DNA from: Letharia columbiana
Lineage: Eukaryota; Ascomycota; Lecanoromycetes; Lecanorales; Parmeliaceae
NCBI RefSeq assembly: GCF_014066305.1
Contig: NW_023501077.1
Span: 407,953-471,952 of the forward strand
Length of the DNA: 64,000 nucleotides
Direction: 5' to 3'
Shown here: positions 8,519 to 53,682 of the stretch, piece by piece
How the letters are laid out: the number at the start of each line of letters is the position of its first letter
Numbering within the stretch: position 1 is the stretch's first letter
Made by a program: the position numbers and the translations under genes
Notes under the pieces: generated by a model
The model's input: only the letters and a program-made list of their open reading frames with translations
Told to the model about the DNA's origin: nothing
Databases searched by the model: none

Positions 8519-8526
8519 CTTAGACG

Positions 8527-22233: not shown

Positions 22234-22267
<34 letters not shown>

Positions 22268-22279
22268 TTTAAAAACACC

Positions 22280-22321
<42 letters not shown>

Positions 22322-22500: not shown

Positions 22501-22552
<52 letters not shown>
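22056..22552. other. Homopolymer block at the start of the AT-rich region, probable assembly artefact
   Basis: About 500 bp of alternating long C, T and A runs (over 40 C at about 22279-22311, over 35 T, over 45 A) with hardly any complex sequence. It falls exactly where gene-bearing DNA meets the RIP block. Low-quality consensus or a forced join is the simplest explanation, so linkage of the two sides is not assured. Confidence 0.7.
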
Positions 22553-22555
<3 letters not shown>

Positions 22556-22559
22556 AAAT

Positions 22560-26425: not shown

Positions 26426-26828
26426 TATCCGATAACCTCCCACATGTAACAAATCCATTTTTCCTACTACCCCTCGTACCATCTCCACCACCACTCCACT
26501 CCCACCATATAATCTACTATGAATGGCTTGTATCTAGTCTAGAGACTACATAGCAACTACCCTATCATGAAATCGCTTCACACAGTCCCCTTTGCGACAT
26601 AAGAAGACTTTACATACACTGCACCCCCCCTTAGTCCTTGGGGAAATACCACTATTACCACTAATCTCTCTACCAAAACCCCTCCCCTTAATGTCTATGC
26701 GACATTGAACACACGTACGACTACCCTTCAAGTCCTATCAGTTATGATTACCTCGTAAATGCCTTAATAGTATGATAATAGGGGGTGGAGGTAGATTTGT
26801 TACATTAGATCCGGGAGGTTATCGGATA
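26426..26828. mobile_element. 403-bp piggyBac-like non-autonomous element (TIR-bounded, not RIP-mutated)
   Basis: The left arm TATCCGATAACCTCCC...ATGTAACAAATC (26426-26455) is the inverse of the right arm (26794-26828). 28 positions match, with a 5-nt length difference in the middle. The interior has normal composition. On the minus strand it encodes a Cys-rich tail (next entry) like that of piggyBac transposases. I do not see the TTAA target expected for piggyBac, so the TIRs may belong to another family or the flanks have decayed. Confidence 0.6.
26546..26731 (-). pseudogene. PiggyBac-transposase-like C-terminal zinc-ribbon fragment
   Basis: Sixty-one codons beginning at a TTG (no ATG) read SRTCVQC...GISPRTKGGCSVCKVFLC...CVKRFHD before the stop at 26546. 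The CxxC...CxxCxxxxC...C(x3)FH arrangement, with PRT before the second CxxC, matches the Cys-rich C-terminal domain of fungal piggyBac (DDE_Tnp_1_7) transposases. The catalytic domain is absent, so this is a remnant inside a deletion derivative. Confidence 0.5.
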
Positions 26829-29234: not shown

Positions 29235-29354
29235 GCCTTTTCATTAAATCGTCGATCTAGAAAAGTTAATATATCCCTTAGTATTCTCTTAAAAGTATCG
29301 CAGCTTAATATAACAAGTCATATTTCTTTAAGCTACCTTCTCGCGATATATAAA

Positions 29355-29568
29355 AAAAAGATTAGATATAGAAAGTATATAAAAGTATATTTGATGATTC
29401 TAGAATAAATTAACGATACTTATAATGATAATTAGAATTAAGAATTAGATATACTCGAATAAGAGATAGCTTTACGCTACTCGTGTAATAGCGATAATAG
29501 TAATTAAGGTTAGAATATCGACTTAGATAACGCAGCTTTCGTAGTAAACTTTTCATTGCTATACGCCA
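29355..29568. repeat. Repeat family X, left half (interrupted copy)
   Basis: Colinear with 50858-51060, including GATATAGAAAGTATATAAAA, TTAGAATTAAGAATTAGATA and GTAATTAAGGTTA. Differences are mostly C/T and G/A. It ends abruptly at CATCTGC, where the 19-kb insertion starts; its continuation is at 48531. Confidence 0.75.
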
Positions 29569-32500
29569 CATCTGCAAATCTAAAAAGTTTCTTTCCGCAC
29601 GATTTCCGCCGGGTCCGCATTATAAGCACGATTTAATACGATTTAGCCTATTAAGTAAACTTTATCTATATTTAACTCTTTTTATTAGTTTAATAACTAA
29701 ATATAGTAAACTTCGCGTTTAATAAGCTAAGATAGTATTTATCTAAGTTAGTTAGATTTTAAAGTAATTATAAACTATTAATTTAATAGTATATATCTAA
29801 AAATTCGAGAGACTATATATAAGATAGATTTTTTAGATTATTTAAGATAGATAATGTTATTAATAATAATAATATCTATTAAAAATTTAATTCGGCTAAT
29901 TAAATATATATTAAGAAGATTTTCGAAATTATTCGAGCTAGATAGTATTATTAATTATAATAATATCTATAAAAATTCTAGATTAACTAGTTTCGCTAAT
30001 AATATTAGTATTTATAGTATATTCGAATTAAATGATATCGCCGATTATAACGACGTCTCTAGAGTATTTAATTCGAATTAAACTCGATATCTCTAGATAT
30101 CTAATAGAAGTTATCGATTTAAGATTTATCGCGGTATCTTATCGTAATATTAATAATATTTATAATCTCTAAAATATAGATTCTTAAATAATTAAAATTT
30201 TAAGCGCTATAGCGATATTTAATTCTTTATTAATTCTTATTTAATTCGCCTAATAGATAAAGAGATTAACTCTTTCTATTCTATCCACTACGCTATATAT
30301 TCTTTATATTTTTCCTCCCTATCTAGTATAATTTTATTAATCTATAAATACTTATCTTCTTTATAAGTCGTCTCTTTCTTTATTCGCTATAGTAAAGTTA
30401 TAGATAATATACTAAAGTTTAGCCTTTTTTATCTATCCTCTCTACTTACCGAGATATGAAGTATTTATACTTCGAGCTTAGAGAGATTTAAATTTTAGTT
30501 ATTATTTATTAAATTAATTCTTTTCTATTTAATTATTTTATATATTAATTATTTCTTAATAGCCCGCGAGATCCTTTCGTTATCTTCGATTAGGCTTGAA
30601 TTCAACCTCTCGAATAATTTAATATTAGCGAATCTTAGTGTAATTTCCCTTAAAGCGCTTACGAAGCCCGATTCCTCGATAATATTATTTAGCGAATTCT
30701 TATATGGGTTATTCAATTTAGAGGATCCCTATACCTTTTTTATTAATCTAAAGTATATCTTTAGAATACGCTATCGTAATATATAATATATGATAAGCCT
30801 TTTCTATTATTCTATATCTCTCTAGAACTTCTTAATATACTCGTATATTTCTAAGAAGTATTATAATTATACGAGTAGTGGAATAATAGTAAAGAGCTTA
30901 TCTTCGACTTTCTTACTATTTCATTTTTTAATATAAAAATATCTAGAACTATAGTTCTTTAGATTATAATCAAAGGCGGTTACTATAAGAACTATAGTAT
31001 TATTAAATAAAAGTGATTAAAAATACTTACTTCTTTGCCTAAATCCGAGAAATACTCTTTTACTATAAAAGAAAATTTTATATAACAATATAACTATTAA
31101 TTAAAATAAGAAGTATTTCTTATTCTAGAGACTATTAGCTAAAGAAGTTAATTAACTTAAGTTTCATAAAATATATTATATTCTATCTATTTTATAAATC
31201 TTAATATATAAATTAAAGGTCGATTAATAAGTCGCTAACTATCGTCTTTAGATCTTTAGATAATAACGTTATATAAATCTTAAGATAAGATTAAATAATA
31301 TCTCGAATTTTCTTTATTAAAGTTAAACGAAAATCGCCTATATAATCGAAAAGCTATATTCTTATTAGAAAGAGTCTAAAGCATTAATAATAATAATTAA
31401 TTAAGAGTATTAATATCTTTCTCGTCTCGAAATATATAGGTTAATTATCGATACTTCGTATAAATCGAGTATTCTTATAAAGTTATTATCTCTAATCTCT
31501 TTATATTTTAATTATTACTTAATTAAACGCGTTAATATAATACTTCGACTAAGAACTTAGCTCTTAAAGACTTAGATATTTAAGATCTTCGCTAGTTATA
31601 ATTATTATAAGTAAGATAATTCTTATCGCCTCGAATATATTAAGATACTCTTTCTTAATATTATAATCGCGTTTTTCTCGTTATATTAAATTATTTTAAA
31701 GCGCGATCTAACAATTATCTTTATTCGAGCCACCTTGTAAAGTATAATCTATATATCTTTCTTTATTCTAATCTATCGATAATATATAATTCGATATTAT
31801 TAGAGATATTAATGAAGCTCTAAATTTTCTTATCTTATTTAATAGATATATCGATAAGGGGCTTAAACGAGCTATATACTAATAACGCGGCTTTAATATA
31901 ATAACGTCTAACGACTCTATTTAGCGTAATACTTTTTAATATTAAATTACTTATAGCGATTTAATTATTATTCTACTATACTTAGAATATATACTTATTT
32001 TTATACTAAAGCTCTATATAAAGTATTCTAGCTTCGTTATTATAAAGATAGCTTCTCTTAATAGATTATTTCCTATTTCGACTTAGTATATATTTATTAA
32101 TCTAAATATTTAGTTATATAATATATTCTTATTTTACTCTATTAATTCTAATTCTTCGTCGCTAATAAGAATTACTCTAAATTCTATAATTTATATCAGC
32201 TAGTTTATATCGATATTACTCGATTTTAAAACTAATTAACTAATAATTAATATTATTACTTTTTATTCTAGATTTAATAATCTTAATACTCGATCGAGGT
32301 TTAAATAGAAGTCTTTCTACCGCTTTCTATTAAGGTATTAGCCCGATAAAAAATATAAATTAAATAAGAATATATCGAGTTTATAACTTTCGCCTTTATC
32401 TTCGACTTTAAAAGAGAGATCTTTTCTAATATTTATAATAGTATATAAAATTAAGAGAGTACCGTTAATGTTAGAGGGAGCTTTATTATATATAATAATT

Positions 32501-35344
32501 ATAATTATTAACGACTTCTTTATCTTCTATAGATTAATAGAGTTATTTAAGAATTTATTATCGTCGTAGTTAGATACTATATATATACTCTTTTTAGATT
32601 TATATATTCTATAACGTTTAAGCGATCTAAGATCTACTTATCTATATTCTTCGATATGTCTTTTCCTTTTATTAGTTTTCTTTATTTTATTTACTTTCTA
32701 CTAATATATAGTTAATAATATTTTCGCGAATAAGTAGACTATGATTTATATTTCCTATCTTCTTAGCTTCCTTCTCCCTTCTAATATTTTTAACCCTCTT
32801 TATCGCTATCCTCTTTTTTATATTCTACTTTAGAGTTTTTATAATCTCTATAATTTAGATATAATAAGCTTATTTAATAAAATACGAAATATTATAAATC
32901 TTCTATCGTTATTAGAAGTTAGAATAAAATCGATATTAAACGCTAAAGACGATAATAAATAAAATATAAAAATAAATATATTTAAATAGATAAAAAAATA
33001 AAAGAATAGAGAAAAGTTATTAATTTGAAAAGGGGGGCTGTTAATTAGCGCGTTTTCAACTTATTTAAATTAAAGCGCGTTGAATCTCTATTTAAATTCG
33101 ACTGCCTATTTAACTTAAACACTCTATTTAAACTAAATAACGTTTCCGCTAATAATCTTTATTCGAATTAAATAAATTTTCTATTAATAATTAACGTTAA
33201 GTTAACTATTATCTATTATCAAATATTATTACCCTAATTACACTTCCCTATTTACTTTTCTATTCTCAAATATTTTTCTATAAATAATATCTATTTTAGT
33301 ATATATAATTATAGATCTTCTAGTATAAATACTTATTAATAACGATTACTTCGATATATTAATAATATATTCTATTCCTTAGATAGCGTTATATATAAAG
33401 TTATAATTTACGTAATTATCGATAACGATATTATTATAAACTTTATAACTATTAAAAATAACGTATAATTCTTTTTAGCGACTCGAAGTTATTTTATATA
33501 TAATAATATATTTCTACTATAGTTGATACCGCCTTTTTATAATCTCTATTAATAGGATATAGAGGTTAAATATCAGCTTTAGCGCTTTTTATATTACCTC
33601 TCTCTATTTAATAAAGGTCGCGTATTTTTTCTAATTGAAGTCTACTGAGATATAGTCTATAAAGAAAATTTATATTAGCGAATTTTCTAGAAGTTATTCG
33701 AGTTTAACGCTATTAAATAACGCGAGGCGCTAATTATATTAAAGATAAAGATCTTATATCGTATAAAGCGTAGGGAGATATTTAGAGAAAGTAGAGATTA
33801 TAGATTATTTTAGTAAGATAGACTTTTTATATTATAGAATTTCTCGAAACTAATTAAGCTTTAGAGAATATAACGATTATAGTATAAATATCTAACTATT
33901 TCTTATATATATATATATTACGGCTCTAAATTCTTTCGCTAACAGCGAGAATAATCAATTTAGACTATTATATCGCTTTACGTATTTCTCTTAATATCTT
34001 TATCACCTTTTTCTTTTTTTAAGATAAATAATCTCTTCGCATATTAGTAATAGTAGATATATATAAAAAATAAATATTTATCTATCTAATATTCTTTAAT
34101 TATAAAGAATATAGAATTTTAACTTTACTTATATATCGATAATACGATTATCTTAAACTTTCGAAAATAATTAATCTTAATATCTTTATTATCGATACGA
34201 TATATAATTCGATCTATTATAGCGTTATATACTTTATCTTCTTTTAATATATTTATAAATATATCGAAATCGATATTATTTATCGTAATGCGAATTAATA
34301 TCTAGATTTTAATAATATTAAAAGGCGATATTAGTATATCGATTATAGTTCTTTTTAAATATATATAAAAACTAGCTCGATTAAAGATATATAATTATAA
34401 TATAAAGTTAACGTTATTAATAAAGATAGATCGTTCGTTTAGTCGTCTATATTTATAAATCTATATATATATATAGTTAATTTTTATAGCTATACTTAAT
34501 TCGTAATTACTTAATTATTCTCTTAAAATATTAGATATAAAAACTCTCGAGAAGATATTCTTTAGTTACTTAAAGGTCTCGTTAAGTTTTATTTAATTAT
34601 AAAGAACGTTAAGCGCGCTTCTAATTAGATATCTCTTTTTTATCTCTTACTTTAAAAAAAAGCGAATCTTTTTATAACTAGACTCTTCTATTATTAAATC
34701 GCGCGAGATAATTAATATCGTTTAAATTCTTAAATTAATATTAATATAAAACGATTTAGATAAAATAAGTAAAGATAATACGACGCTAATTTATAAAGAT
34801 CTATATTTTATATCTAAAATTAATTAAATTATAGAATTCTAAAAAAAATAGAATAATTCTAGAGGAGAATATATTAGAAAGAATATTATAGAATTAATAG
34901 AGATTTTAATTTAGAAATAGATTTTACGAGCTAACCTTTATCTAATAAACTCTATTATATTATTTATTCTATCTATTTAAGAAATTAATTAATAATTAAG
35001 TTAAATAGTCGAAGTTGAATAATATAATACGAAGTCGAACTATACTATATATTATTTAGATATTTAAAATATCTATTTAAGAATAATATATATCTTTTCT
35101 AATTTCTCTATCTATTATATATCTAAATTATCTTATCTTTTACTTCTTTACTTATATCGTTATTCTTATATCTATTATAAATATTAACCTTTAAATTAAG
35201 TATCTTTTATTCGATCTTCTTATTTAGAATCTTTTTATTTAGATCTTATAAGTTATTTAATATTAAATTATAATTATATATTAAAATAGTATAGAAGCTT
35301 TAGAATAATTAAGTATACTTATAAATAGCGTATTTAAAAAGATA

Positions 35345-38200
35345 ATATAGTATTATTATATATCTAAAAACGAACTATCTCTCTTTATATATTTCTATTT
35401 AAAATCTTATTATCGAGGCTTTTTAAATTATCTAATATTAAGTAGTAGTTATATATCTTTTTATTTTTCTATAATAGTTATATTACTCTCTTATCTATTT
35501 AAATATTCTATTATTTCTTCTAATTAGTATTTAAATTAATAAAATAAAAAACTCTTATTAGCGTTATATCTATATTTATAAAGCGCTTAATTAAGATAAA
35601 AAAGCGAAATTTATCGTTATCCTTAAAAGATTATACTATTAAACTATTATAATTCTTAAGTTAAATAGCTAAAAAGTACTAGAGAGTTTTATTATCTAGA
35701 TACTCTTACTTAAATTACTATAAGTTTATTAATATTATTTAAGATTAATAAAATAAAGAAGAAGACTATATTAGAGCGATAATTAGATTAATTATAGAGG
35801 AATTTATAAATATTATTAGCTTTTTAGAACGTTCGTAGATATCTTTATTAAGAATATCGATTAGCTATTTTAATACGATAAATTTAAAAGTATTTTTTAT
35901 TAAGTCGTATAAATAGTAATTATATATACTATCTTACGAATACTATAATTAATTCTCCTTTATATTATCTAATTTAAAAGATTAATCGCTATTATTTAGA
36001 TTTATAATAATTCTTATTATTACGATACTTAATATCGATTAACTTCAATTAATATATCTTAGAGAATTCGAGAATATTAGAAATAATAGTTACGGCGTAT
36101 AATTTATAAATCTTATTAAAGTATAATCTATATATAAATTTAAATAGGTTATACCCTTAGTTTTAGATCTTCTTATATTATATAAGATATTTAACTTTAA
36201 TCTAATCTTAAATAATTTAATTAGTATCTTAAAGAATTTTTCTCTAATCGTTGTTTAATAAGTAGATAATCTTTTTTATCTTATAAAGTAAAAGCTTTAT
36301 AAGCAAAGCGTCGCTATTAATAATTCTCGATTTTATTATTTATTTAATTATTAGCTTATCTAGAATTATTTATATTTTATCGATATTTCTCTTTAACTTC
36401 TTATTCGATAAAGCGCGTAAACGAAACTTTATATTCTTTATACACTTTTTAATATTATAATATTTCTTCTCTATTATCTTAGATAAAACGATATTTATCT
36501 TTTATTATAACTACTTAATTAATAAAATTATCGTCGCTATATTAATAAAGAATATAATTTATAATATAGCTAAATATCTATAAACGAATAATAGATAATA
36601 TTTAAACTTCTTCGCTATTCTATTATAATATACTTACTTCTTCTTACTTAAATTTTATATATAAATAAGATCTTCGATAATAATTCTAAATTACTCTATC
36701 TTATAGGCGGTAATTATAGATTACTCTATCTTATAAATAATAATTAATATAGGCGTTAAGAAGATATTCGACTTTATATTATAGTACTCGTCGATATAAA
36801 TCTATTTAATAGCGAAGTTATATATAAATAAGCCCTTTATCTTAGCTTAAATATAATTCTTATAGAACTCGAGTATTATTAAGATTAAAAACCTCTCTTA
36901 TCTAGATTAAGCTTTATCGTTAATTATATATTTAAATAATTTAATATTCGTAGAAGTTAAAGGCTTTAAGCTAATATTATAATATCGAACTAATTTATAT
37001 ATATAAAAGACGCGAAGTTATATTATATTATAATCTTCGAGATTTATTAGCTTAGTAATTTCGATAAGTTAATTCGCGAAAATTTTAGCTAGAACGATTA
37101 TTAAGAAGAATCTTAATTTAAATATTATTCGAGTTATATAGTTAGCTTCGTTTTCGTATAAATATATAATATTAAATATCTCGATTGAAGGGTATTAAAA
37201 CTATCGATTCTTCCGAATAAATCTTAATATAAGATATTTATCCGCGAAGGGAGACTTCTTAAAGACTTTAATAATAATAATATTTTAGTATTCTTTAAGG
37301 ATATTAAATTATAGAGTAAGTTATTACTTAAATATCGAACTTATTAATAATATTAAAGTCTAAAGAAATATTTATATTAGCGAGTTAAATAAAAGAATTA
37401 GATATATTTATCTTATTAAAACTAGGCTTATTTATATTAATTACTCTACTATAAAGATTTATCTAAAGATGTCTTTATATTAAATTATATAGCTAATAAA
37501 TTTTTAAGATAATAAATATTAAGGTTTCTTACGAACTTAAGATATATTCTAAGCCTTTAAAGATATAAGTATTTTTAATACTTCTATTACTATGATTAAG
37601 TTATAGAACTTACTTTATAATTTTCTAAGTCTAATCTAATTATTATAATCTTCCTTTCTTATTAAGCTTAATCTTTCTATTAAATTAATTAATATAAAGA
37701 GTAAATAATTAATAATATTCGAATATATACTCTAATATTAGATCTTTATCGCCGACCTTTATATTATTCTATATCTTTCTTTAACTTATAATTTTATTAA
37801 TCTTAATATTATAAGAGTTAGTTAATTAAAAGATGTAATCTTATTTAATTAAAAGCTTTATTAATATAGTATCTTTTATTATTAAACGCCTCTTCTCTTA
37901 TAATAAAAATGCGTTATTACTTTTATAAGTTTTAAGTATAACGACGTTATCTATTAAATTATTAATAGACTTCTTTTATAGAGAACGATAATGGACTTAT
38001 AGCCGAGAATTACTCTTATTTAAACTAATACTAATAAATTAAGAATTTATCTTATTTTCTTCGTAGATATTAAATAGATTAAGTAATAAGATCGAAGGCG
38101 AAGCGATAGTAGAATAGAAAGAAAGCGGAGTTTTAATAGATTTAGATTAAGGCGGGGTATTAGCAAGTCTAAAAGAAATTAAAAACTTCGAGATTTTCTA
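35345..38200. repeat. 2.85-kb direct repeat, copy 1
   Basis: Colinear with 38905-41745 over its whole length (offset about 3.54-3.56 kb). Shared blocks include TTCTTATTCGATAAAGCGCG (36405 and 39960) and TATTTA(T/C)CCGCGAAGGGAG (37237 and 40774). Differences are mostly transitions. Both copies are RIP-mutated. No coding domain was identified; on the minus strand long frames appear if TAA/TAG are read as mutated Gln codons. Confidence 0.7.
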
Positions 38201-38904
38201 AAAATCTTCTTATACGAAGTATAATAAAAGAAAGATATAAAGAAGAAGAATATTAAGGGTTAGAGTTAAGATTAGAGTACTTTAATAAATAGCTTAATCT
38301 TCTTCGTAGATAAGAATTTATTTAATAATTTACTTTAGTAGTAAATAAAGTTTAAAAGAAGAATATAATATATTATTAATAATCTATTTAGACCGAAAGC
38401 TAATCTTAAAAGTTGAGATAAAAAATTTATATTAGATAGAACTCGATATTAAAATTAAGAGTAACTTCGATAAAGATTTTATTAAATATTATTTATAGTA
38501 TAAAGTTTATAAAGTAAATATTAAATAATAAATTATAAAGGGAAAATAGTAGAATATAATATTATAAGCGTTAATAACTAGCGCGATAATCGATTATCTA
38601 GCTTCGATTCGATAGTTTATTAACTATTTAAATCGTCTATTCGATTTAAATATTCGATTATAATTTATATTATCTAGAAGCTAGATTAGAGATTATATTA
38701 ATAATTAGAGATTATAATTAAAAGAATTATAGATATTTAGTAGAAGTTAAATATTAAATCTATTATTACTATTAATTAACTCGAATATATTACTTATTTA
38801 ATTCGAATACTAAATATAGTAGTAGTATCGAAATCGAATAAGCGATATCTAAGTTATCTATATATTCGCGTTATCTACATTTTTAGTATTATTATCTTTA
38901 TCTC

Positions 38905-41745
38905 TAATATTATTATATATCTAAGATTAAATCATCTCTCTTTATATATTTCGATTTAATATCTTATTATTAAGACTCTTCGAGTTATTTAATATTAAGT
39001 AATAATTATAGATCTTTTTATTTTTCTATAATAGTCGTATTACTCTATTATCTACTTAAATATTCTATTATTTCTTCTAATTAATATCTAAATTTATAAA
39101 GCGAAAGAATCTTATTAAGATTATATCTATATTTATAAGACGTTTAATAAAAACTAGAAAGTAAAATTCGTTATTATTCTCGAAAGGCTATATTATTATA
39201 TTATTATAATTCTTAAAAAGAATCGCCGAGAAGTATTAGAGAGTTTCGTAATTCGAATATTCTCGTTTAAGTTACTGCGAGTTTATTAATATTACTCGAG
39301 ATTAATTAGATAAAGAAGAAAAATATATTAAATTAATAATAAGATTAATAATAAGAGAATTTATAAAAACGATTAATTTTTCAATACGTTTATATATATT
39401 CTCCTCGAGAATATTAATTAGTTACTTTAAGACGATAAGCTTAAGAGTATCTTATATTAGCTTATCTAGATAATAGTTATAAATACTATATTCTAAGTAT
39501 TAAAGTTAATTATTTTTCTTATTATCTAGCTTCGTAAAGTTTAATTATTATTATCTTATTCTATAATAATCTTTATTATTTCGATACTTAGAATTAATTA
39601 ATTTTAATTAATATTATTTAGAAAAGTCGAGGATATTTAAAATTACTATTACTATTTAAAGCTTATAAGCTTTATTAAAATATAAGTTATAGATAAAGTT
39701 AAAGATAATATAGTCTTAGATTATAACTTTCTTATATTATATAAAATATTTCGCTTTAGTCTAGTTTTAAATAGTTTAATTAATATTCTATAATATCTTT
39801 CTCTAATTCTCGCTTAATATATAAATAATCTTTCTTATCTTATATAGTAAAAGTTTAATAAGTAAAATATTATTATTAATAATTCTCGTCTTCGCTATTT
39901 ATTTAATTATCAATTTATCTAGAACTATCTATATTTTATTAATATTTCTCTTTAACTTCTTATTCGATAAAGCGCGTAAACGAGATTTTATATTCTCTAT
40001 CCGCTTTTTAATCTTATAATATACTTTCTCTATTATCTTCGATATAATAGAATATATTTTCTATTATAATTACTCTATCGAGAGAACTATTATCGCTACT
40101 ATATCTATAAAGAATTTAATTTATAATATAGCTAAGTATTTATATATAAATAATAGATAATACTTATACTTCTTCGCTAGTCTATTATAGTATACTTACC
40201 CCTTCTTACGTAATTTTTATATACTTATAAAATCGTCGATTATAATTCTAGATTACTCTATTTTATAGATATTAATTAATATAAGAATTAAGATAATATT
40301 TAACTTCGTATTATAGAATTCGTTAATATAAATCTAGTCGATAATAAAATTATATTCGAATTTTTCTTTATCTTTAATTATAGCTTTTATATAATTCTTA
40401 TATAATTTGAAGATTATTAGAATTAAGAATCTCTCTTATCTAGATTAAGCTTAATCGTTAATTATATATTTAAATAATTTAATATTTATAGAAGTTAAGA
40501 GCTTAGCGCTAATTTTACTATATCGAGTTAATTTATATATATAAAATATATAAAGTTATATAACGTCGTAATCGTCGAGATTTATAAGCTTAATAATTTT
40601 AATAAGCTAAATTATTAAAGTCTTTACTAGAATAATAATAAGAAAGAATTTTATTTTAAATATTATTTAGGCTATATAATTCGCTTTATTTTTATATAGA
40701 TAAATAACGTTAAGTATCTCGATTGAAGGGTATTAAAACTACTAATCCTTTCGAATAAATCTCGATGTGAGATATTTACCCGCGAAGGGAGACTTCTTAA
40801 AGACTTCGACGATAGTAATATTCTAATATTCTTTAAGGATATTAAATCGTAAAGTAAGTTATTATTTAAATATTCAACTTATTAATAGTATTAGAGTTTA
40901 AAGAAATATTTATATTAGCGAGTTAAATAAAAGAATTAGATATATTTATCTTATTAAAGTCGAGCTTATTCGTATTAATAGCTTCTTCGTAAATATTTAT
41001 TTAAAGATATTACTATATTAAATTATAGAGTTAATAGATCTTTAAAATAATAGAAATTAATATTTCTCGCGAATCTAAGATATAGTCTAAGTCTCTAAAT
41101 ATTTGAATATTATTAATATTTATATTATTATAGTTAAGCTATAAGACTTACTCTATAATTTATTAAGTTATATTAAATTATTAAGACCTCTCTTTTTATC
41201 GAGCTTTATCTTTCTATTATATTAATTAATATAAAAAATAAATAAATAATAATACTCGAATATATACTCTAATATTAGATCTTTATCGTCGGCCTTTATA
41301 TTATTCTATATCTTTCTTTAACTTATAATTTTATTAATTTTAATATTATAAGAGTTAGTTAATTAAAAAGCGTAATTTTATTTAATTAAGAGCTTTATTA
41401 ATATAATATCTTCTATTATTAAACACTTTTTCTTTTATAATAAAAGCGCGTTATTACTTTTATAAGTTTTAAGTATAATAACGTTATCTATTAAATTATT
41501 AACGAACTTCTTTTATAGAGAACGATAACGAACTTATAGTTAAGGATTATTCTTATTTAAATTAATATTAATAAGTCGAAAATCTATTTTATTCTTTTTA
41601 TAGATATTAAGTAAATTAGATAATAAAATTGAAGGTAAAGTAATAATAGAATAGAGAGAAAGTGAAATTTCGATAAAATTAAATTAAGATAAAGTATTAT
41701 AAAAATTAGAAAAGATTAAAAACTTTAAGACTTACTTTAGCTTAA
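38905..41745. repeat. 2.85-kb direct repeat, copy 2
   Basis: Second copy of the repeat at 35345-38200, in the same orientation, separated from it by about 700 bp that do not align. It ends near AGAAAAGATTAAAAACTTTA. Confidence 0.7.
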
Positions 41746-44700
41746 TAGAAGAAAAAACTAAATACTCGAATATCTTAAAAGATTATTAAGATTAAGAATA
41801 TAAGTGTATTAATAAATCTCGCGAAGTTTTAAAGATACTAGCTTCGATATCTAACGTCTTAATTAAAGCTAGAATTAATATTAATACTTATTATTAATAT
41901 AGAGAAGCGAGATAAATAAATCTTTAATTACGCGCTATAAGAATATCCGCTATTTAAATATATATACTCGCTCTTAATATTTATACGCCTCTTATAAGTT
42001 ATTATTATTATTTATAGTTAAGCTTATATTATTTACTCTATAGATTAAATAAAATAATACTATAGAATTTTTATTAATATTACTTTAAAATTATTTCGAT
42101 TGAAGATAGATAATAAGAGCTTTAAGATTAAGTTACTCTTAGAATTAAGAGATTACTATTAAATTATTTATTAACTTCTAAATAAAGACGAGTTTATACT
42201 CGTTTAGATTATTAATAATAATAAGTTAAAGAGAGTTAATATTAGGGGGGTTTTTAGTCGATAGTTTACTAAATTAATAGAGATTTATTAATCTCTCAGT
42301 TGTTAAGAGCTTCTAGATCTTCGCATATTCATCTTTTTATATTTTTATCGATTCCCTCTTAAATAATCGCTTCTCTTACTTTATAGACGCCTCGTTAATT
42401 AATAAGATTAATTTATATAAGAATTTAAGAAGAAAGTTAAGGTCTTATACGACTATATAATTAAGAATAAGTAGTAATTAAATAGTCTCGCTTACGATAA
42501 TATTAACCTTTCTCTTATACGATCTTATAAACTTTTTCTAAAGGTCTTTATATCTTAATTAGCGCGAGAACTTCTCTTTTATTACTTTAAATATAGGCTC
42601 TGAAAATCGAAGTCCTTTATAAATATTATCTTAGTTCGCAATAACGCCTAACTTAGTAACGCCGATTTTAAAATAGAAATTAATTTCGATAGACGCTACT
42701 ATTATAAGTATATCGTTTAGAGAAAATATAGATATTAATATAATAGTATATATAATACGATAGTAAGAAAACGCGCGTTAGATTAAGTAAGATATAAGAT
42801 AAAAAGAAATTTAAATAAGACTATAGAGTTCGAGTTAGATATTCGATATTATTTCTTAAAATATATATTGTATCTTCGATTAACTTTAACTAATTATAAG
42901 TAGACTTCGATTAATATTAACTTTATTAATGACTATCTTAATAGCCTTAATTAAATATTAATATATTATATCTTTAATTAACTTTAATTAATTATTAGTA
43001 GAAACTTCGATAAAAGCTTTAACTAGCGTTAAAATTAATAACGCGTATATCGATAATAAGAGTGCGAATTTTGCTACTATATCTGCTAGGGATATAAATT
43101 TATTTAATAATAGCATAAATTTTCTAAGATCTATTCTCTATTAATAATTTCGAAATTAATAATCTTCGATAAAGTTTAAGTAATAATGATTACTTTAATA
43201 ATTAGTATTTCGAAAATTAATATTTATTTTAATTCTTCGATATAAGAGATAATAGTAAGATATAGTAGTTAATAAATATTATATCTATATAATTTTTATC
43301 TACTCTTCGATTAATTAGTAGATAATCGAGTTCCTTTTTTAGTAGATATACTAATCTTCTTTCTTCTTTATATCTATAAAAATCGATTAATTAGATTATC
43401 TTCTCTTCGAATATATATAACTTTTAATAATTCGTTCGGCTTCGATCGTTTATATCTAAAAAGCTTTTATTCTAATAGTTTCTTTTATGCAAAATATATA
43501 CTCTTAAATTATATACTCTATAGACGGCTTTACTATTTTAAAGTAAATATATAAATATAGTTTTATATATATAAAAGCGCTTTAATTATATACGCATTAA
43601 ATACGAAGAAACGTTTAAAAATAATAAAAGTATTTCTCCCCTAAATAGCTCGTTATAGACTCTTCCTTTTTATAAATATCTATTAATATAAGATATTTTT
43701 TATATATAGATTTATAAATATCTTTAATATAATTATAAAGAATATAAAGTTAAAATTAAGCTTTATAATAAGTAAGGCTAGAGTAGTAATATACGTTCGC
43801 TAAGACGTTAACACGTTATCGATTACTAAAAAACGCGTATCTTATAATTAATCAATAACAGATAAGAGAATATATATCGAATATATCGCTTTTATAAAAA
43901 ATAATACAAAAATAGTAGTGAACTTATTAGATATCTACGAGGTTATAAAAAGCGAAAACTAATTCTTTTATACGCGTCTTTCGATATTACAAATTGCGAT
44001 ATAATTAATAATATTAATAATTTAATAGCTCTAATTATCGTAAAAGAAGAAGATATATATTTACTCGAAGATAATATAATTACGAATTTAATATTATAAT
44101 AGTAATTAAATAAGTAGAAGATAGAGAAAGAGGGAATAAACGCGGTGTAAATAATAAACCTAAATAATAAGATAATAATATTCTCTATCTCTATAATAGA
44201 CTTAAGTTATAGTACTATAATTTTATCTTTAATAATTAACTCTATAGAATTATATTTAAAAAAGCGAGACGCTAAGAGATTAATAAAATTATAATTTAAA
44301 TTAAAGTCTCTTAGTTAAATAAAATCGATATTTAATTATTAAACTAAGTTAGACGTTAAGTCGATATTCGATATAAATAATTTTTAAAATTTATTTAAAT
44401 CCTAGGAAGATTATGCGCTGGCGCTATAATTTCTTAAATCGAAACTCTTCGATAATAATATTAATAAATTCTTTCGCGATATTTATTTATAGCGATTTCG
44501 AGACGACTATAGCTTTAATAACGCGAAATTATTAAGATATAAAATATAGAATATACGTGGCAATAATATCGACGGCGGCTAGATTAGTTAGTCTTTTAAA
44601 ATCTATAACTTTAAACCCGAATTAAGATCGAAGATATATTACGTTATTTACTTCGATATTATAAGTATTATTAAAGCGTTTTTAATATATAAATCTTTTA

Positions 44701-47097
44701 GTATAAGCTTATATTATCGATCTATATACTAAAGAAACGCTAATAAAGCGAGAGTCTATAACGAGATATATACTACGAATTAATAGTAGAAAACGTAAAA
44801 TAAACTATCTAATAACTCTATCGTCGTTCTTATTATTTTAATATTAAATAAAACTTATCTCTCTTAAATATATAAGAACTAATATACTTAATTAATTTAT
44901 ATTATAATTAAGAATCTTTAATAAGACGCGTAACGCGCGTATAGTAGATCGAATATAGCGATTCTAGAAATAATATCGATTATTATAAAAAAAGAAGCTA
45001 AGACCTAGATCTATTACTATATCTTAAATTTAATAATCGAAGATAACTTCTTATACTCTCGCGATATATTATCTACTAACGAAGTATATTTAATAATTAA
45101 AAGATACTTCGAATATAATATTAATATATAATACGCGGATAGTCTAATTCGAAGATATTATTTAATATTAGCTACTATAATATTAAATTATAAAAAATAG
45201 ATAATAATTACTTTAATCTTAAGCGATAAATATTATTCTATATATATAATCTTACTTATAGAGAGAGAGTAATTATACCTCTTAATTCTATATTCTAAAT
45301 AAATATTTAAGTATACGATTAAGTAGCTGAGACTATAAAAGAGATATATTAATAAAATATCGAAATATTTATAGAATATAGTACTCTATAACCGTTATCC
45401 TTTTATCGATAATTATTTCGCTATTAATATATATCGACTATAATATTTTAATATCTTATACTTTTTAATAATTAAGAGACTTATAGACTATTTACTTAAA
45501 TAATAGATTAAATATATTAAAATTATAAAGATAGAGAATAAAATAAATAAGCTTTTTAATACTCGCTTTCGGGCGATTTCTAGCTATATTAATCTAAGAT
45601 ATATTAAGTCTCTAAGTAAGAAGATATAGTAAATAAAAGAGAACGATCGAACTCTATAGAGGACGATAATAATTATCTTTATATCGATCTTAATTAAATT
45701 AAATTCGAATACGCTATATATAGATCGCGCTATTTTTAATCTTATTATATTAGCGAGATATTATTCTTATAATAATAATACTATTCGATATCTACTCGCG
45801 ATCTTAACTCAAATTAATTTATTAAAAGAGATTTTTCGAGTATATAGATCTCTAAATAAAATAACGAATAAAGGTTACTTTAACTTCTTAAAGTTTTATA
45901 ATATTAGTTACTTACTCGAAATAATATAATTATTTAATTTATCCGATAAATTAACTATTTAAATAAGAGAAAAGGCGTATATTAAATTCTTTAAAAAGTA
46001 TTATAGATTAACGAATAAGTATAATAACTATATTAAATAGATTATACGTTATAATATCGTATATTAGAAGATAATTACGATATATAATCTCGTTAAGCAC
46101 TAAAATATAGAAGTATTATTATTTATAATTAAGAGATTATAAAAAAAAGAGAAAAAGATTAAGATGAGAATTTCTTTAGATCTTTATATCTAAGATTAGT
46201 AGGCGAATAATAAAAAGTGTAATATTATAAGATAAATCTATTATTATAATAGTCGTTATTAATAATTAATAAAGGTTATTACTAAATAATTAGAGTTAAA
46301 TACTTTTTTTAAAACTCTAGTCGCCTTTATTCGAATAGATTAAACGAAATTAAGGGAATATTATCTATCTAAAAAAGATAATAATATCGATATATATAAG
46401 GCGAACTGTGAATAGATATATCGATATCCAATTTATATCTATTTTAATATTCGATATTAAAAGACTCTTAAAGAAGATTCTCTAAATATAGCTCGTCTAT
46501 TTAAAAACGTCGTCGTCTATAGACTTATTAATTAATTCTTTTAAAAAAGATAGCGTAGAAACTACGCTTAGATCTATAAATATAATTAATAAATCTTTAA
46601 TATTAATAAGATTTTTTTAAGGAAATTAATAGAGAAAGTACTAATCGTAATAAAAGTAATAAATCTAGCTCGTAGAGATTTCAAATAAAGATCGACTTAT
46701 CTATAAGATATTTTTATAGAGATATTTAAGTATCGATATAATAAATAAGTTTAGAAATATTATAATATAGTAAAAATAAAAAAGGCGTAGTTATTAATAG
46801 CGCGGAATCTAAAAATTCTCGAAAAACGACGATTCTATAGCCTCGTAAGTATAGAGAGAAGTATATATATTATACCCGCGTCGGTAAAAGATAAGAAATT
46901 TTATTATATTAATAGCTTTATTGACTTTAATTAATATAATAGTATTTATAATTTAAACTTTCTAAATAAAAGCTATAGAGTAGTAAAGAAGATTAATATA
47001 CGCTATACTATAAGATAATAGAGATATTAAGAATCTAAATCTTAGGATATTAGAAATAAGATTAAATATATAATAGGTAAAATCGGTTCTAGTTACC

Positions 47098-47169
47098 CTT
47101 CTTAACTCGAATATCTTTCTCAATTCGAATACCCTTCTCGACTCGAATATCCTTCTCAACTTAAATAAC
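47098..47169. repeat. 18-bp tandem repeat, four units
   Basis: Units such as CTTCTCGACTCGAATATC stand at 47098, 47116, 47134 and 47152. On the minus strand they encode a six-residue repeat of the type ELRKIF/ESRRVF within a 65-codon frame. A low-complexity coding relic or a minisatellite. Confidence 0.7.
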
Positions 47170-48060
47170 TTTCGAATTATCTTTAGAGTTTATTAAGTGA
47201 AAAGAGATTCTATAATTATAGAATATATACGTAAATATCGTAATTAGAAAGAGAAGAGAGGGCGGACTTTTCCCTAATTAGAAAGACGTTAATACACTTT
47301 AAAAAGTATTTAATTAAGTATTCTAGCGCCGAAGACTACTATTAGACTAATTCGCGATTTCTTATAATTTAAAGAATACTATCGCCCATAATAAGGGCTA
47401 TCATTCAAAGTTTCTTTAAGTTATTAATAATCTATACGATAATATTAAAACCGAGATACGTTATTTTAAAAATATGATAAACTAGAAGAAAGCCTTAACG
47501 TAAGATATTATAAGAGGAGATTTATATATACTACTACTCGCTATACTCTTATATATATAATTATTTAAAAGTCGAAACTTCTAACTTAAGAAAGTCGATT
47601 TCGATTTTATAAGAAAAATGTCTAATACTTTAACGAGTATTAATACGCATAAATCTTAAAGGGATTTAGATATTAAAAGAAGAGGTTAGTAGAGCTAAGG
47701 TCGAGTAATAAAGATATAAATATATATTATTAATCTTTATATATATTATATTAACTTTAACGCGATTATAGCGATAGAAGAGCGTACTAACAACGATTTT
47801 CCTTCTTAGATAATTAGCGCTTACGAGATATATTATAAATAATAATATTCTTATCTTTAGTAGAGAAGGTAGATTACTCGATATAGTAATATAAACTTAT
47901 ATATATAAACTCAATATCTGACGATAGCATTATTAAGTTAAATCGAATTAGACTTATAGTATAACTAAGTTAAGTCGAACTCGACTTATAGAGTTAAGTC
48001 AATATCGCGAATTATAGAAATAATAAAATATTAATATAAGACGATTATTATTTTTAAAAA

Positions 48061-48480
48061 AATTATTTAAATAGTATATAGTAATTATTAAATTAGCGGA
48101 TATTATTTAAATAGTATATAATAATTACTAAATCGGCGAATATTATTTAAATAGTATATAGTAATTACTAAATCGACGAATAGTATTTTAATAGTAAATA
48201 GTAATTATTAAATCGGCGAATAGCGTATAAAAAGTAAACTATAGTTACTAATTAGGCGGAATTTAAGCGAATTTAAATTAGATTTATTAATTCGACGAAT
48301 TTTATTTAAATAGTATATAGTAATTACTAAATTAACGAATAGCATTTTAATAGTAAATAGTAATTATTAAATCGATAAATAGCGTGTGAAAAGTAGATTA
48401 TAATTATTAATTAGGCGGAATTTAGACGGATTTAAATTAGATTTACTAATTCGGCGGATTTTATAATTTCCGCGATCAAC
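48061..48480. repeat. 40-bp minisatellite with a 160-bp higher-order unit
   Basis: The unit ATTATTTAAATAGTATATAG followed by TAATTACTAAATCGGCGAAT is repeated with variation from 48061. A larger block, which adds an AATTAGGCGGAATTTA segment, occurs twice (about 48130-48295 and 48296-48460). It lies just inside the right TIR of the 19-kb insertion, a typical position for subterminal repeats. Confidence 0.7.
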
Positions 48481-48530
48481 GCGCGATTAGTAATTTCAAA
48501 TTTTGTAGAAACTTTTCAGATTTGCAGATA

Positions 48531-49003
48531 TAGATTAATTACGTGCGAGTAAAGATTTATAATTTCATCTTTTAGACGTAATCGCGCTTAATATTTTGAG
48601 ATTTCTATAATAGCTCGATGCTTATTAGCTAGCGCGTTAATATTATTATATCTAAGCTATAATAGCGCTTATTATTAAGTTCTATATTACGCTCTCGAGT
48701 AATTTAAAAGATAAGATTTACTTAATTATTAACGCGTATAATAGAATTATTCTTAATACTTATATTTTATTTAGTTTTAATATTATTTATTTCCTTTTAA
48801 TTCGAGCTTTTATCTTTATTTATATATATGATAGTTCGCGTAATAAGCGAAACTTTAGACTTCTTCGCAATTACGCTCGCGTGCTTTTTTTATATAATAT
48901 TATTAAAATATAAGTTTACTAAAATAATAACTAGAACTAGAAGTTATTTATCGCTTATCTATTATATCTTATCTAATCTATTTAAAAACTTACTTCTATT
49001 ATA
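48531..49003. repeat. Repeat family X, right half (interrupted copy)
   Basis: Colinear with 51061-51525: both carry ATTTCTATAATAGCTCGAT, ATTATTATATCTAAGCTATA and TTTATATATAT(G/A)ATA. It continues the left half at 29568 if the 19-kb insertion is removed. Confidence 0.75.
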
Positions 49004-50857
49004 ACGACGATATATCGATATATTTAATTTTATATTTTTTAATAATTATAGCGTAATTAATAGCTAAGATATCGATTTTCTTTACTTTTTTAATTAGTTT
49101 CTTCTTAAATATAAACGTATTTATTCGCTATCGCGATCTCTTAGTATTTTTATTTTAATTAAGCTTATTCTTCGCTTTTTATTTTAATTAAGAACCTAGT
49201 CGTTATCTAATTAACTTATATCGAGACTCTTTAATATCGCTATTATTATTAGTATTTAATACTTATTATAATAAATTATTAGACTTAATCTCTTTTACTT
49301 TAATTATTATAAAAAGATAAATTAGTAAATATATATAAAAGAATTAAAGGGTTTATACGGATATCTATAAATATTAAGCTATCCTTAATTTTAATTAAAG
49401 CTTATTTTATTAAAAAGTGCGTTAATTCTAGTAAGTATCGATATTAGAAATAAAGAGAATATATATTACGCGTTATTATAAGTATATTATTATAGAGTTT
49501 AACTTAAAGAATAATTATTTCTATAAAGATAGTAAGACTTAAAGATAAGAAAGTAAAAATGAAATATATGAAAACTTTAATAAGTTATAGTAGTTTAGCG
49601 TTAGCTAAATTAAATAAAGATAGTTATTTACTAGCTCGCTCTCTTAGATCTTTTATTTTTTAATTTATACGGGCTATAATAATAATTATAATTATTATAG
49701 AAGTAATTAAGATCGTATTAGATAATAACGCTTAATATATATAATTCGCTTAAGCTTAAATCTTTAAAATTAAAGAGAAAGTATTTTATTAATATCTAAT
49801 TTAAGCTAGATAATTTAAAGTAATTTAAAAATTTAGTATACGCGATAGATATCTAAGCTTTTCTTCCCCTCTTCTTTCTCTTTAAGACTTTCTTTTTTAT
49901 ATTAACTCTTCTTATTATTAGATTATCTTCTTTATATATTAAACTTCTATTTAAATAATTTAATATTATTATAGCGATATTAAAAGTATAACGTAGTTAT
50001 TAAGTTATATATTTATTTTTTATTTTTTAATAACTTTAAGCTAATATATAGATAAACCGCGTGAAGAGCTTAACTTATATACGCTTAATCTATCGTTAAT
50101 AGATCTTTAAAAAAGCTAATATTATTCTAGAGTGCTAAATATAGCGTTAAAATAAAGTTTTTATTAAATATCACCGCCGCTTTAACTGCTATTGTCGCCG
50201 CTTTAATAGATATTACTTCTATTTTAATAATATTAAGATATCGATAGAAACTAGATAGTATATTCTTTTAGTTATTATTATATTTATTATATATAACTAA
50301 CGCGAGCTATAGCTTAAGCTTTACGCGAGATTTATTATTATTAAAAGTCGATTAATTTTATAATCTCGAAGCTTTTTTTTTAATATCTAGTTTATTAGAT
50401 TATACTTAATTAAAATCTATTAAAGCGCTATTATATTTAAAGATTTATTTTTAAAGTATTATATAAGATAATAAAAACCTTTCTAGTTCGTTAGTTTAAG
50501 AGTAAACCTTTTATTACTACGCTTTATAATTAGCTCTAATAATCTCTATTTAAATAGATATTTATCTTTATACGATATATAAAAAGCGAGTTACGTTATA
50601 GAAAAAGAATCTAGATCTCGCGATTATCTTAGTTAAGTCGTTTAGATTAAAGATAAGAGTATATTTATCTTTAGTTATTAAATTAATTAATTATTATAAA
50701 TATAACTATAAGATATAATTATATATTATCGATTATTCTAGTAATTATAAAAAGTATAAGAAAAATAAAATTATATAATTAAGTATTTATAAACTTTTCT
50801 CTTCTAAATATTTATTTTAATTTAGAGTTTAATTGCTATCTAATTAAAAAAAGGGTA
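49004..50857. mobile_element. RIP-mutated repeat DNA, unidentified
   Basis: AT-rich DNA between two copies of repeat family X. No ORF, terminal repeat or RNA gene was recognised. Confidence 0.5.
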
Positions 50858-51525
50858 AGATATAGAAAGTATATAAAAGTATATTTAATAATTCTAGAAT
50901 GAATTAACGATATCTATAATAATAATTAGAATTAAGAATTAGATATACTTAAATAAGAGATAGCTTTATATTATTCGTATAATAGTAAGAGTAGTAATTA
51001 AGGTTAAAATATTAATCTAGATAGCGTAGCTTTTATAGTAGATTTTTTATTATTATATATTAAATTAATTATATATTAATAAAGATTTATAATTTTATCT
51101 TCTAGGCGTAATTATATTTAATATTTTAAGATTTCTATAATAGCTCGATATTAATTAGTTAGTATATTAATATTATTATATCTAAGCTATAATAGAGCTT
51201 ATTATTAAATTTTATATCGCGCTTTTAAGTAGCTTAAAAGATAAAGTCTATTTAATTATCAACGCGAATTATTTTTAATACTTATATCTTATTTAACTTT
51301 AATATTATTTATATTTTTATAATCTAAACTCTTATCTTTATTTATATATATAATAATTTACGCGAAGAGCGAAACTCTAGACTTTCTTTAAATTATACTC
51401 GCGTATTTTTCTTATATAATATTATTAAAATATAAATCTATTTATTAGAATAATAATTAGACTTAGAAGTTATTTATTGCTTATCTATTATATTTTATCT
51501 AATTTACTTAAAAGCTTACTTCTAT
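50858..51525. repeat. Repeat family X, uninterrupted copy (empty site)
   Basis: About 670 bp whose first 200 bp match 29355-29568 and whose remaining 465 bp match 48531-49003 without a gap. It is more strongly RIP-mutated than either half of the interrupted copy (for example TATACGCC against TATATATT at the junction). Confidence 0.75.
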
Positions 51526-53682
51526 TTTCCTATTAAGTCTATTAATTAGATTAAAATTTATATATTATTTTTATATAAATATCTAATCGCGTATTAAATA
51601 ATATCTTATTATTTAAGACTTTTAAATATAATCTAGCTAAAAAAAAAATCTATTATATAAAAAATTATAAATCGCGATATATATTTTTATAGCGGTAGAG
51701 AATTCTAATTATCTTTATAATTATCGTTATTTAAAAATAATTATAATAGCGAAAAATACTCGTATTCTTATTTTTAGTCTAGAATTAGAATTATGTAATT
51801 AGCTTATTAAGATTTTAGACTTAGATAATTTATATCTTTATAGAAATACTTAGATCGCTTAAGTATATTAGCGATATTCTTATATATTAATTTAGTATTA
51901 ATAAGTTTAAAAGCCTCTTATATCTCTTCGCTCGCCTTATTAAATATAAATCTATATTTTATTATATTATAATTCTTAGATTATTATCTAGCCGATTCTA
52001 ATAGCGATATCTATCCTTTTTTATTCTTAAGCGCCTATATTATATAGTTTCTAAGAACTATATATTTTATTCTAGTAAAAAATATATATAAAAGAGGAAG
52101 ATAATAAACTTTTTTAGACTTTATAATCGAAGATAATTAATAAGTAAGTTCGATATAAATAAGATTAATATATAAATAATAAGTTTATTTAAATATAAAT
52201 TAGAATATTAAAATTAAAATTAATATAGAGAAAAACTTATATTAATAAATATTATTTTAATAATTCTTTTTTAAGAAAATTTTTATAAATTATACGAGAC
52301 TCCCACGTAATAAGAATAAATATTCTTTTAAGAGTTTATTATATCTTCGAAAATTTCTAGATATTTAATCTTCTTTCTAATAGATTTAATTATAGTTTAC
52401 TATACTCGTTATTGCAGTAAGAAGATATCGATAAATACTTCGATCTTTTATACTTATATCTTATCTATTAACATTATTTAAGAATTTATATTCTTTAAAA
52501 AAAGTTAAGAATTTTCGAATTACTTAATTTTTTAATTAATAATATTTAATTATATATCGATAATTATATCTTTATCTTCTTTCTTTATATTAAATTACTT
52601 ATCGCGCTTTATATTAATATTCTTAGTAAAATCTAGAATTAAAATTATATCTAATAAACTTAATCGTTTATAGAGTTTATTATCTTCGATATAATATATA
52701 AAATATTATATATAAATATTAGCTATAATATTAGAAAGATATTAGAATAATTATAATAATAATTAGAATTTATAATAAGTATATCGATTATATATAATAT
52801 ATTCGATAATCCTCTTTTTATTTCCTTTTTTTCTTAGAAATAGCTTTTTAATATTTAGAGAAAGCTAGAAGTCTTTTCTTAGCTATTTATTTCGCTATCG
52901 TATTTATATTATTTTATTTTCTTAAGATTACTCTTAATAGTTTATATATATTTAGACTTATTAAATACTAACGCGATTTTACTATATTCTTATTTCTAAA
53001 ATATTTATCTACTATTTTTTATATCTTGCTATTACTTAAGCTTTTAGAATATTTTTATTTCTTTAGAGGTAATATAATAGAGCGAATTAAAGCTATTATC
53101 TTTATTAATAATATTAGCTTTTATAATATTAAGAGATAATAGAAAGTACGTAAATTTACTTATTTAATTAAATTCTTACTTAAGATAATTATAACGATGA
53201 TTTTCGTATAAAAAGCTTATTATAAGATATTAAAAAATATATTATAAAGAGTATATTAGTATTATAATAGAAATAGTAAGAAAATTTAAGTAGAATTATA
53301 TTATTATAGAAGATGATATAATTAGAAAGAGTATTAGAAAAAGCTAAAATATAAGAAAATATAAGAATACGTTAATTAAAAAATAGGCTAGTTTATTAAC
53401 GCGTTTTCGCGTTTTTTCGAATTCTTATTTATAAAGAAATTCGATACTAATTTTTAATATTATAAAGTTAGATTTTAATCGAATTTTTTTAAATTTAATA
53501 ATCTAATTAGAATAGTTAAGGATTATTATTAATAATAGACTTTTCTTAGTTTTTATATAATAATAGATATCTATTTTAAGCTTCTAAGAATCTAGATCTA
53601 AGAATCTTATAAGATAAGTTTATCTTTTTTTAGATTTTATTTTACGCCTTCGATTTATTATATATATTTTCTCTTTTAAAGA
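51526..53682. mobile_element. RIP-mutated repeat DNA, unidentified
   Basis: AT-rich, stop-riddled, without recognisable domains or repeats. Confidence 0.5.

What the first reader, a model, noticed from the sequence alone, without database searches (positions are those of the whole stretch)
29569..48530. A 19-kb TIR-bounded insertion with its own empty site 2 kb downstream
Seen: repeat family X is split between 29568 and 48531, and the unsplit paralogue lies at 50858-51525. The insert edges are inverted copies (ATCTGCAAATCT...AGATTTGCAGAT), and CA/TA fits a 2-bp target duplication. Inference: a very large DNA transposon, or a smaller one enlarged by nested insertions, that was later silenced by RIP. 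Fungal TIR elements of this size are uncommon, and the ends do not match one I know.
Basis: partly seen in the sequence, partly recalled or inferred. Interest (0 to 1): 0.75.

Follow-up and report, generated by a model that had tools for sequence, protein, structure and literature searches.

The report
Giant Plavaka transposon, silenced, lichen fungus
A 19,000-base jumping gene of the Plavaka type sits here in a lichen fungus; about 35 large copies and many miniature ones share its ends, and the large copies that were read have been wrecked by the fungus's own mutation defence.

Summary
The 18,962-bp insert 29569-48530 has inverted ends (CATCTGCAAATCT...AGATTTGCAGATA), a 2-bp target duplication (CA/TA) and an unsplit copy of its target repeat 2 kb downstream. 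It is a true giant DNA transposon, not a small one swollen by nesting: 35 of 35 left-end probe matches (short fragments set aside) pair with a right-end match, and 12 of 13 copies with both ends clearly found have identical 2-bp duplications of varied sequence. The genome is Letharia columbiana, a lichen fungus. A 1,050-codon frame at 43866-47015, full of stops, matches the Plavaka transposase family (PF18759), a CACTA-like group; un-RIPped relatives on two contigs match with 197-205 bits. Miniature elements of about 550-670 bp share its ends and 2-bp duplication. The insert also carries a near-orphan minus-strand gene, a duplicated 2.8-kb module, a BTB-gene piece, subterminal repeats, and about 6 kb on the left where I could name no gene. 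Four copies compared over 6.5 kb differ almost only by transitions (4,757 against 67 transversions), so they spread recently and were then mutated by RIP. A known kind, in an unusually large variant; lineage within Plavaka unsettled.

The parts
29569..48530 (+). Giant Plavaka-type transposon, 18,962 bp, RIP-mutated copy
   Evidence: Ends and 2-bp duplication; colinear copies elsewhere in the genome
29567..29568 (.). Left target duplication (CA)
48531..48532 (.). Right target duplication (TA)
29569..29592 (+). Left terminal inverted repeat
48507..48530 (-). Right terminal inverted repeat
29570..29690 (+). Left end shared with the miniature elements (87-89% over 112-121 bp, two elements compared)
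48388..48529 (+). Right end shared with the miniature elements (83-86% over 116-144 bp, two elements compared)
43866..47015 (+). Transposase gene (Plavaka, PF18759), one continuous frame of 1,050 codons with many in-frame stops; the two conserved D read as N
   Evidence: tblastn with un-RIPped relatives; hmmscan with X at stops, 34.0 bits, cut-off 26.3
41225..43308 (-). Near-orphan companion gene: ORF-B (42777-41884), a same-frame match upstream (43308-42892) and an adjoining different frame B2 (41884-41225)
   Evidence: tblastn; ORF-B gives 57 matches in the genome; one homologue found
35348..38199 (-). Module copy 1 of a 2.8-kb duplication; holds a B2-like piece at 38197-37688 (-)
38905..41736 (-). 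Module copy 2 (78% identical to copy 1)
47186..47518 (+). Piece of a BTB/POZ-domain frame that is open in the un-RIPped relatives
   Evidence: tblastn; BTB 24.3 bits, cut-off 20.5, in the relatives
48062..48464 (+). Subterminal tandem repeats, about 40-bp unit
   Evidence: un-RIPped motif count
30244..30918 (+). Left-half stretch with 2-3 stops per 150 codons shared by four copies in one frame; coding-like, unidentified
   Evidence: no Pfam match, no homologue
32044..32943 (.). Second coding-like stretch of the left half (4-6 shared stops per 150 codons in one plus frame; one minus frame is low as well), unidentified
   Evidence: no Pfam match
29351..29568 (+). Target repeat X, left part
48531..49000 (+). 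Target repeat X, right part
50845..51526 (+). Unsplit copy of repeat X (empty site)

Best explanation
A giant cut-and-paste DNA transposon of the Plavaka group (CACTA-like DDE transposases). Shown: inverted CATCTGC ends, 2-bp target duplications of varied sequence, about 35 large copies, a Plavaka transposase gene inside, ends shared with a miniature-element family, heavy RIP-type mutation. Inferred: the element-encoded transposase recognised the ends, with the subterminal repeats as likely accessory binding sites, cut out the 19-20 kb unit and joined it to 2-bp staggered target cuts; it also moved the miniature elements in trans; after the burst RIP mutated the large copies and destroyed the transposase.
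For: Ends and duplications: 12 of 13 large copies with both ends scored at least 19 of 21 have identical 2-bp duplications (TA 7, AA 2, CT, TT, AG), this window CA/TA (23 copies examined, 10 lacked a clear end in the stretch read); 23 of 26 miniature elements too. Copy number: 35 of 35 left-probe matches pair with right-probe matches on the same strand. Transposase: PF18759 at 197-205 bits in the un-RIPped relatives and 34 bits in this copy, tblastn E 5e-117 and 1e-156; two RIP-mutated PF18759 matches, on C5 and C22, lie inside the large copies there. D, D, C(2)C, H(3)H and E are kept in the relatives and in homologues, P0004 showing all of them in one protein; motifs as described in PMC12730594. 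First four terminal bases and the 2-bp duplication fit PlavakaB. RIP: (CA+TG)/(AC+GT) is 0.04-0.19 in the nine 2-kb bins wholly inside the insert against 1.17-1.35 at 10-22 kb, where GC is 51-54%; four copies differ by 4,757 transitions and 67 transversions in pairwise comparison.
Against: No intact transposase was found: only four PF18759 matches over E 0.001 in the genome, two un-RIPped but in left-truncated elements with the gene split over several frames, two RIP-mutated. That search did not even list the window copy, so it is blind to most mutated copies. Activity is therefore inferred. Termini are CATCT..AGATG, not the CATCA..TGATG given for PlavakaB. I made no tree of the transposase. 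No gene could be named in about 6 kb of the left half, so part of the size is unexplained.
Confidence: 0.93

Rival explanations
1. A ~600-bp miniature element that grew to 19 kb by nested insertions.
For: Miniature elements with the same ends are common, and at least one large copy does hold a nested one (C1:318455-319037 lies inside the C1 copy 300718-320956).
Against: Homology between this insert and other large copies runs far past the shared ends, e.g. one alignment of 12,764 columns with the C1 copy; 35 of 35 left matches have a right partner; the large units have their own 2-bp duplications at different sites; a transposase of a fitting kind lies inside.
Confidence: 0.02
2. A Tc1/mariner or pogo element with TA duplication.
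For: Window duplication CA/TA; TA is the commonest duplication, 7 of 12 identical ones in large copies and, by my count, 8 of 23 in miniature ones.
Against: Other duplications are AA, CT, TT and AG in large copies and AA, AG, AT, CG, GA, GT, TG and TT in miniature ones; the transposase is Plavaka.
Confidence: 0.01
3. The Plavaka gene is a passenger and another enzyme, encoded in the unread left half, moves the unit.
For: No gene identified in the left half; coding-like frames exist there.
Against: The un-RIPped relatives have the same right terminal sequence and keep the transposase, but not the left half (they are truncated, so this is weak); ends and duplication size suit Plavaka.
Confidence: 0.04

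Closest known systems
PlavakaB transposons of Agaricomycetes (Kojima 2025, PMC12730594; abstract, section 3.2.2 and passages read)
   Same: Plavaka transposase with C(2)C and H(3-4)H motifs, 2-3 bp target duplications, termini beginning CATC
   Different: Here CATCT..AGATG instead of CATCA..TGATG; ascomycete lichen host; no Tet_JBP match over cut-off in the genome; extra frames. I saw no published Plavaka lengths in the passages read, so the size contrast with them is not measured.
Enlarged En/Spm (CACTA) families of the red alga Chondrus crispus, 16-20 kb with 4-5 ORFs (cited in PMC6431247, passages read)
   Same: Related superfamily, same size class, several ORFs
   Different: Different transposase lineage and host; here about 35 copies, RIP-mutated, with a miniature family
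Plavaka giant repeats of Amoebidium, up to 50 kb (PMC11244446, passages read)
   Different: There described as tandem clusters of genes, many for tyrosine recombinases; here ends and target duplications are resolved
Plavaka elements of Marasmius oreades (PMC8290104, passages read)
   Same: Autonomous ones defined by PF18759, with TIRs
   Different: Basidiomycete; TIR details are in a supplement I did not see

Membership tests
Plavaka superfamily | Transposase with the PF18759 domain | tested here: met
   34.0 bits in the window copy with X at stops, 203.3 bits in the C86 relative; cut-off 26.3
Plavaka superfamily | Catalytic D, D, E with C(2)C and H(3-4)H between second D and E (PMC12730594) | tested here: met
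   Met in the un-RIPped relatives (first part from C86, second from C112) and in P0004, P0009 and P0011, precomputed as PF18759; which D and E are catalytic is my reading of that alignment. In the window copy both D read N and the C and H read Y
Plavaka superfamily | 2- or 3-bp target duplication | tested here: met
   12 of 13 large copies identical at 2 bp; 23 of 26 miniature ones
PlavakaB lineage | Termini 5'-CATCA..TGATG-3' | tested here: inconclusive
   First four bases agree, the fifth is T instead of A
PlavakaB lineage | Position in the transposase tree | not tested
   No tree built
PlavakaA lineage | Termini 5'-TGT..ACA-3' | tested here: not met
   Termini are CATCT..AGATG
Tc1/mariner | TA target duplication (recalled) | tested here: not met
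   AA, CT, TT and AG duplications
Maverick/Polinton | Long TIRs and 5-6 bp target duplication (recalled) | tested here: not met
   TIR about 24 bp, 2-bp duplication
Starship | Captain tyrosine recombinase (recalled) | tested here: inconclusive
   No Pfam match in six frames of window 29570-39171, but RIP blunts that test
TET/JBP-bearing Plavaka | TET/JBP gene in the element | tested here: inconclusive
   No PF12851 match over cut-off in the genome; one weak match at C19:432826, outside the large copies; RIP blunts the test

The most novel reading that the evidence does not exclude
A Plavaka lineage that became a multi-gene giant: the duplicated minus-strand near-orphan genes, the BTB gene and the unidentified left-half genes are working helpers (for example DNA-binding subunits for the subterminal repeats, or counter-silencing factors) that let a 19-20 kb unit move at high copy number in a RIP-active ascomycete, while its miniature derivatives, short enough to be hit less by RIP, persisted.
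Probability: 0.25. Interest if true: 0.65.

Novelty: new variant of a known kind. Interest (0 to 1): 0.45.

Why it matters
DNA transposons in fungi are usually far smaller (general knowledge, not measured here); this one is present as about 35 units, 20 of them 18.5-21.5 kb, in one genome, offers a likely parent for a miniature-element family, and its RIP damage shows the order of burst and silencing. Resolved ends and target duplications for an ascomycete Plavaka element would help to annotate AT-rich blocks in lichen fungi, which are otherwise hard to read.

Tried and rejected
Nested-insertion, Tc1/mariner and Maverick readings were rejected (see rivals and membership). Six-frame Pfam scans of window 29570-39171 with X at stops found nothing; as a positive control the same reading of the mutated transposase gave 34.0 bits where the C86 relative gives 203.3, so the scan is weak. 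A homologue search with the best left-half frame found nothing among 3,349 candidates. A Tet_JBP search found no match over cut-off. ORF-B has one homologue, unnamed, among 750 candidates. The un-RIPped relatives on C86 and C112 do not cover the left half. A whole-element DNA query scored only 2 of 421 candidates and undercounts. Literature: searches for Plavaka, Letharia repeats, large fungal TIR elements and lichen transposons showed no title or abstract start about Plavaka in Letharia or a lichen fungus, and the Letharia paper PMC10512270 does not hold the word (passages); the library holds open-licence papers only. Papers: abstract and outline, one section and passages of PMC12730594; passages only of PMC11244446, PMC8290104, PMC10512270, PMC6431247 and PMC11075540.

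Dropped rows: of 23 large copies, ten were left out of the duplication count because one or both ends were not found in the stretch fetched, were degenerate or read N; of these one weak case shows identical bases and one a transition. The 26 miniature elements come from loci fetched with largely unmutated end patterns, so they are biased to less mutated ones. One search used 35 of the 41 rows (left out: three fragments of counted copies and three 46-bp matches) and 37 of the 85 rows (left out: smaller pieces); both searches scored 40 candidates of 48 and 45, so 35 is a lower bound. Pairing allowed 10-60 kb between probes.
Full report
What is there. The insert runs from 29569 to 48530 (18,962 bp). 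Its edges are CATCTGCAAATCTAAAAAGTTTCT and, inverted, TATCTGCAAATCTGAAAAGTTTCT. The flanks end in CA and begin with TA, a 2-bp duplication that differs by one C/T transition. The target is repeat X, whose two halves match the unsplit stretch 50845-51526 at 82%. X is common in the genome: 310 candidate places, 40 scored, the 39 besides the window copy matching all or all but a few of its 682 bases.

Whose genome. A protein of an un-RIPped relative is identical, over the 80% of the query that aligns, to HO173_012249 of Letharia columbiana, on a contig of 163,804 bases; contig C86 of the window's own genome has exactly that length. The lineage is Ascomycota, Lecanoromycetes, Parmeliaceae. It is a lichen-forming fungus.

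One unit, many copies. A left probe (window 29950-31000) and a right probe (46500-48000) found many copies. With short fragments left out, 35 of 35 left matches pair with a right match on the same contig and strand; the two unpaired right matches are the relatives on C86 and C112. Estimated sizes run from 15.1 to 46.7 kb, 20 of 35 between 18.5 and 21.5 kb. A second left probe (31100-33300) again found copies on the same contigs. The C1 copy is colinear with the window insert to both ends, C3 nearly so, and C27 as far as my fetched stretch reached, each with local insertions. In one search I examined 23 copies; 13 had both ends scored at least 19 of 21, and 12 of these have identical 2-bp duplications (TA 7, AA 2, CT 1, TT 1, AG 1), the thirteenth being the window copy. 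So the large unit itself moved, and the target is not TA-specific.

The miniature family. The 12-base end occurs 115+106 times (control 4+3). Many pairs lie about 550-670 bp apart. Of 26 such elements, 23 have identical 2-bp duplications of varied sequence (the label TA-TSD in that output means any identical pair). The two compared with the window share only about 112-121 bp at the left and 116-144 bp at the right with the giant element. A search with one of them gave 272 candidates, 40 scored. GC content ranges from 0.26 to 0.43 in the 26, so some are barely touched by RIP; the sample is biased that way.

The transposase. Contigs C112 and C86 hold un-RIPped relatives of the right half, 99.9% alike over 5.6 kb and 99.1% over 4.5 kb, and their likeness (88%) runs about 130 bp past the right end into the flank, so they may be one insertion held twice, as haplotypes or as a duplication. 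They are 67-79% identical to the window insert by aligned block. Their proteins match PF18759 (199.2 bits; 204.5 and 197.4 bits; 203.3 bits). Aligned to the window they give one continuous frame 43866-47015 of 1,050 codons, matched by tblastn with E 5e-117 for the first half and 1e-156 for the second. Read with X at stops, the window frame itself reaches 34.0 bits over the cut-off of 26.3. In an alignment with proteins annotated as Plavaka, among them those of Mycena venus and an Auriculariales fungus (names), the relatives keep both D, the C(2)C pair, the H(3)H pair and the E (the first part read from C86, the second from C112; P0004 has all in one protein). In the window copy both D read N and the C and H read Y, as C-to-T and G-to-A changes would make them. 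Which residues are catalytic is my reading, guided by the motif description in PMC12730594.

Other contents. On the minus strand lies ORF-B at 42777-41884, with a same-frame match upstream at 43308-42892 and an adjoining different frame at 41884-41225. ORF-B gives 57 matches in the genome (60 candidates, all scored); by my comparison of coordinates they fall in 34 of the 35 large copies, the one on C60 having none. Only one homologue was found, unnamed. A module of 2.8 kb occurs twice (35348-38199 and 38905-41736, 78% identical) and the first copy holds another piece of the adjoining frame. A piece of a BTB-domain frame lies at 47186-47518. The last 500 bp hold tandem repeats of about 40 bp. 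In the un-RIPped C112 relative a pattern YYGGMGGA occurs five times in the last 1.4 kb, four of them 40 bp apart, and once in the 16.7 kb of contig before that; in one miniature element it occurs three times at the right in one orientation and twice at the left in the other. Such subterminal repeats are a feature of CACTA elements (recalled). The left 6 kb has stretches with few shared stops in one frame (30244-30918 and 32044-32943), so it was probably coding, but I could not identify any gene.

History. The insert has lost most of its CA and TG (ratio 0.04-0.19 in the 2-kb bins wholly inside it). Four copies aligned over 6.5 kb differ in pairwise comparison by 4,757 transitions and 67 transversions among 38,928 compared cells, so apart from RIP they are nearly identical: a recent burst, then mutation. 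The two module copies differ by 145 transversions in 2,819 positions, so that duplication is older than the burst. Four PF18759 matches were listed in the genome, two un-RIPped and two RIP-mutated; the window copy itself was not listed, so that search misses mutated copies. The un-RIPped ones are truncated at the left and their transposase lies in more than one frame, by introns, frameshifts or assembly errors, with a 7.6-kb insertion in C86. No intact transposase was found.

Mechanism. Shown: ends, duplications, copy number, transposase domain, RIP-type mutation. Inferred: the transposase bound the ends and subterminal repeats, cut out the unit and inserted it at 2-bp staggered cuts; it moved the miniature elements in trans; ORF-B may be a DNA-binding helper. 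The last point is a guess.

Comparison. Kojima (PMC12730594, section 3.2.2 and passages read) gives PlavakaB termini as CATCA..TGATG with 2-3 bp duplications, and PlavakaA as TGT..ACA with 2 bp. This element is close to PlavakaB but for one base. Elements of similar size are known in a red alga (En/Spm, 16-20 kb, cited in PMC6431247) and as Plavaka giant repeats in Amoebidium (PMC11244446). I saw no report of a Plavaka element in a lichen fungus in the searches named. I file it as a Plavaka-type element, lineage unsettled, and as a new variant because of its size and extra frames.

Noticed in passing
window 26427-26827: An about 400-bp island inside the RIP-mutated block keeps CA and looks bounded by inverted repeats (ATCCGATAACCTCCC...GGGAGGTTATCGGAT), perhaps another miniature transposon (seen by eye).
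   Followed up: no
window 50845-51526, 29351-29568, 48531-49000: Repeat X is itself a high-copy repeat (310 candidate places); its own nature is unknown.
   Followed up: partly
L053, L056, L058 (C86) and L052, L054 (C112): Two un-RIPped, 99.9% alike relatives of the giant element on different contigs that also share about 130 bp of right flank; the C86 copy has a 7.6-kb insertion inside its transposase gene with retrotransposon-like frames.
   Followed up: partly
window 53857-54063, 55334-56143, 61133-61515: Tandem arrays with units of about 24, 265 and 92 bp in the AT-rich block right of the element.
   Followed up: no
window 8346-8522 and 22186-22560: Long homopolymer-like runs (A, T and C; for the second place); similar runs lie just beyond the right end of the C1 giant copy, in L007.
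   Followed up: no
G000:C19:432826-433059: The only Tet_JBP match listed in the genome, weak (17.2 bits, below cut-off), in an open frame of 678 aa.
   Followed up: no
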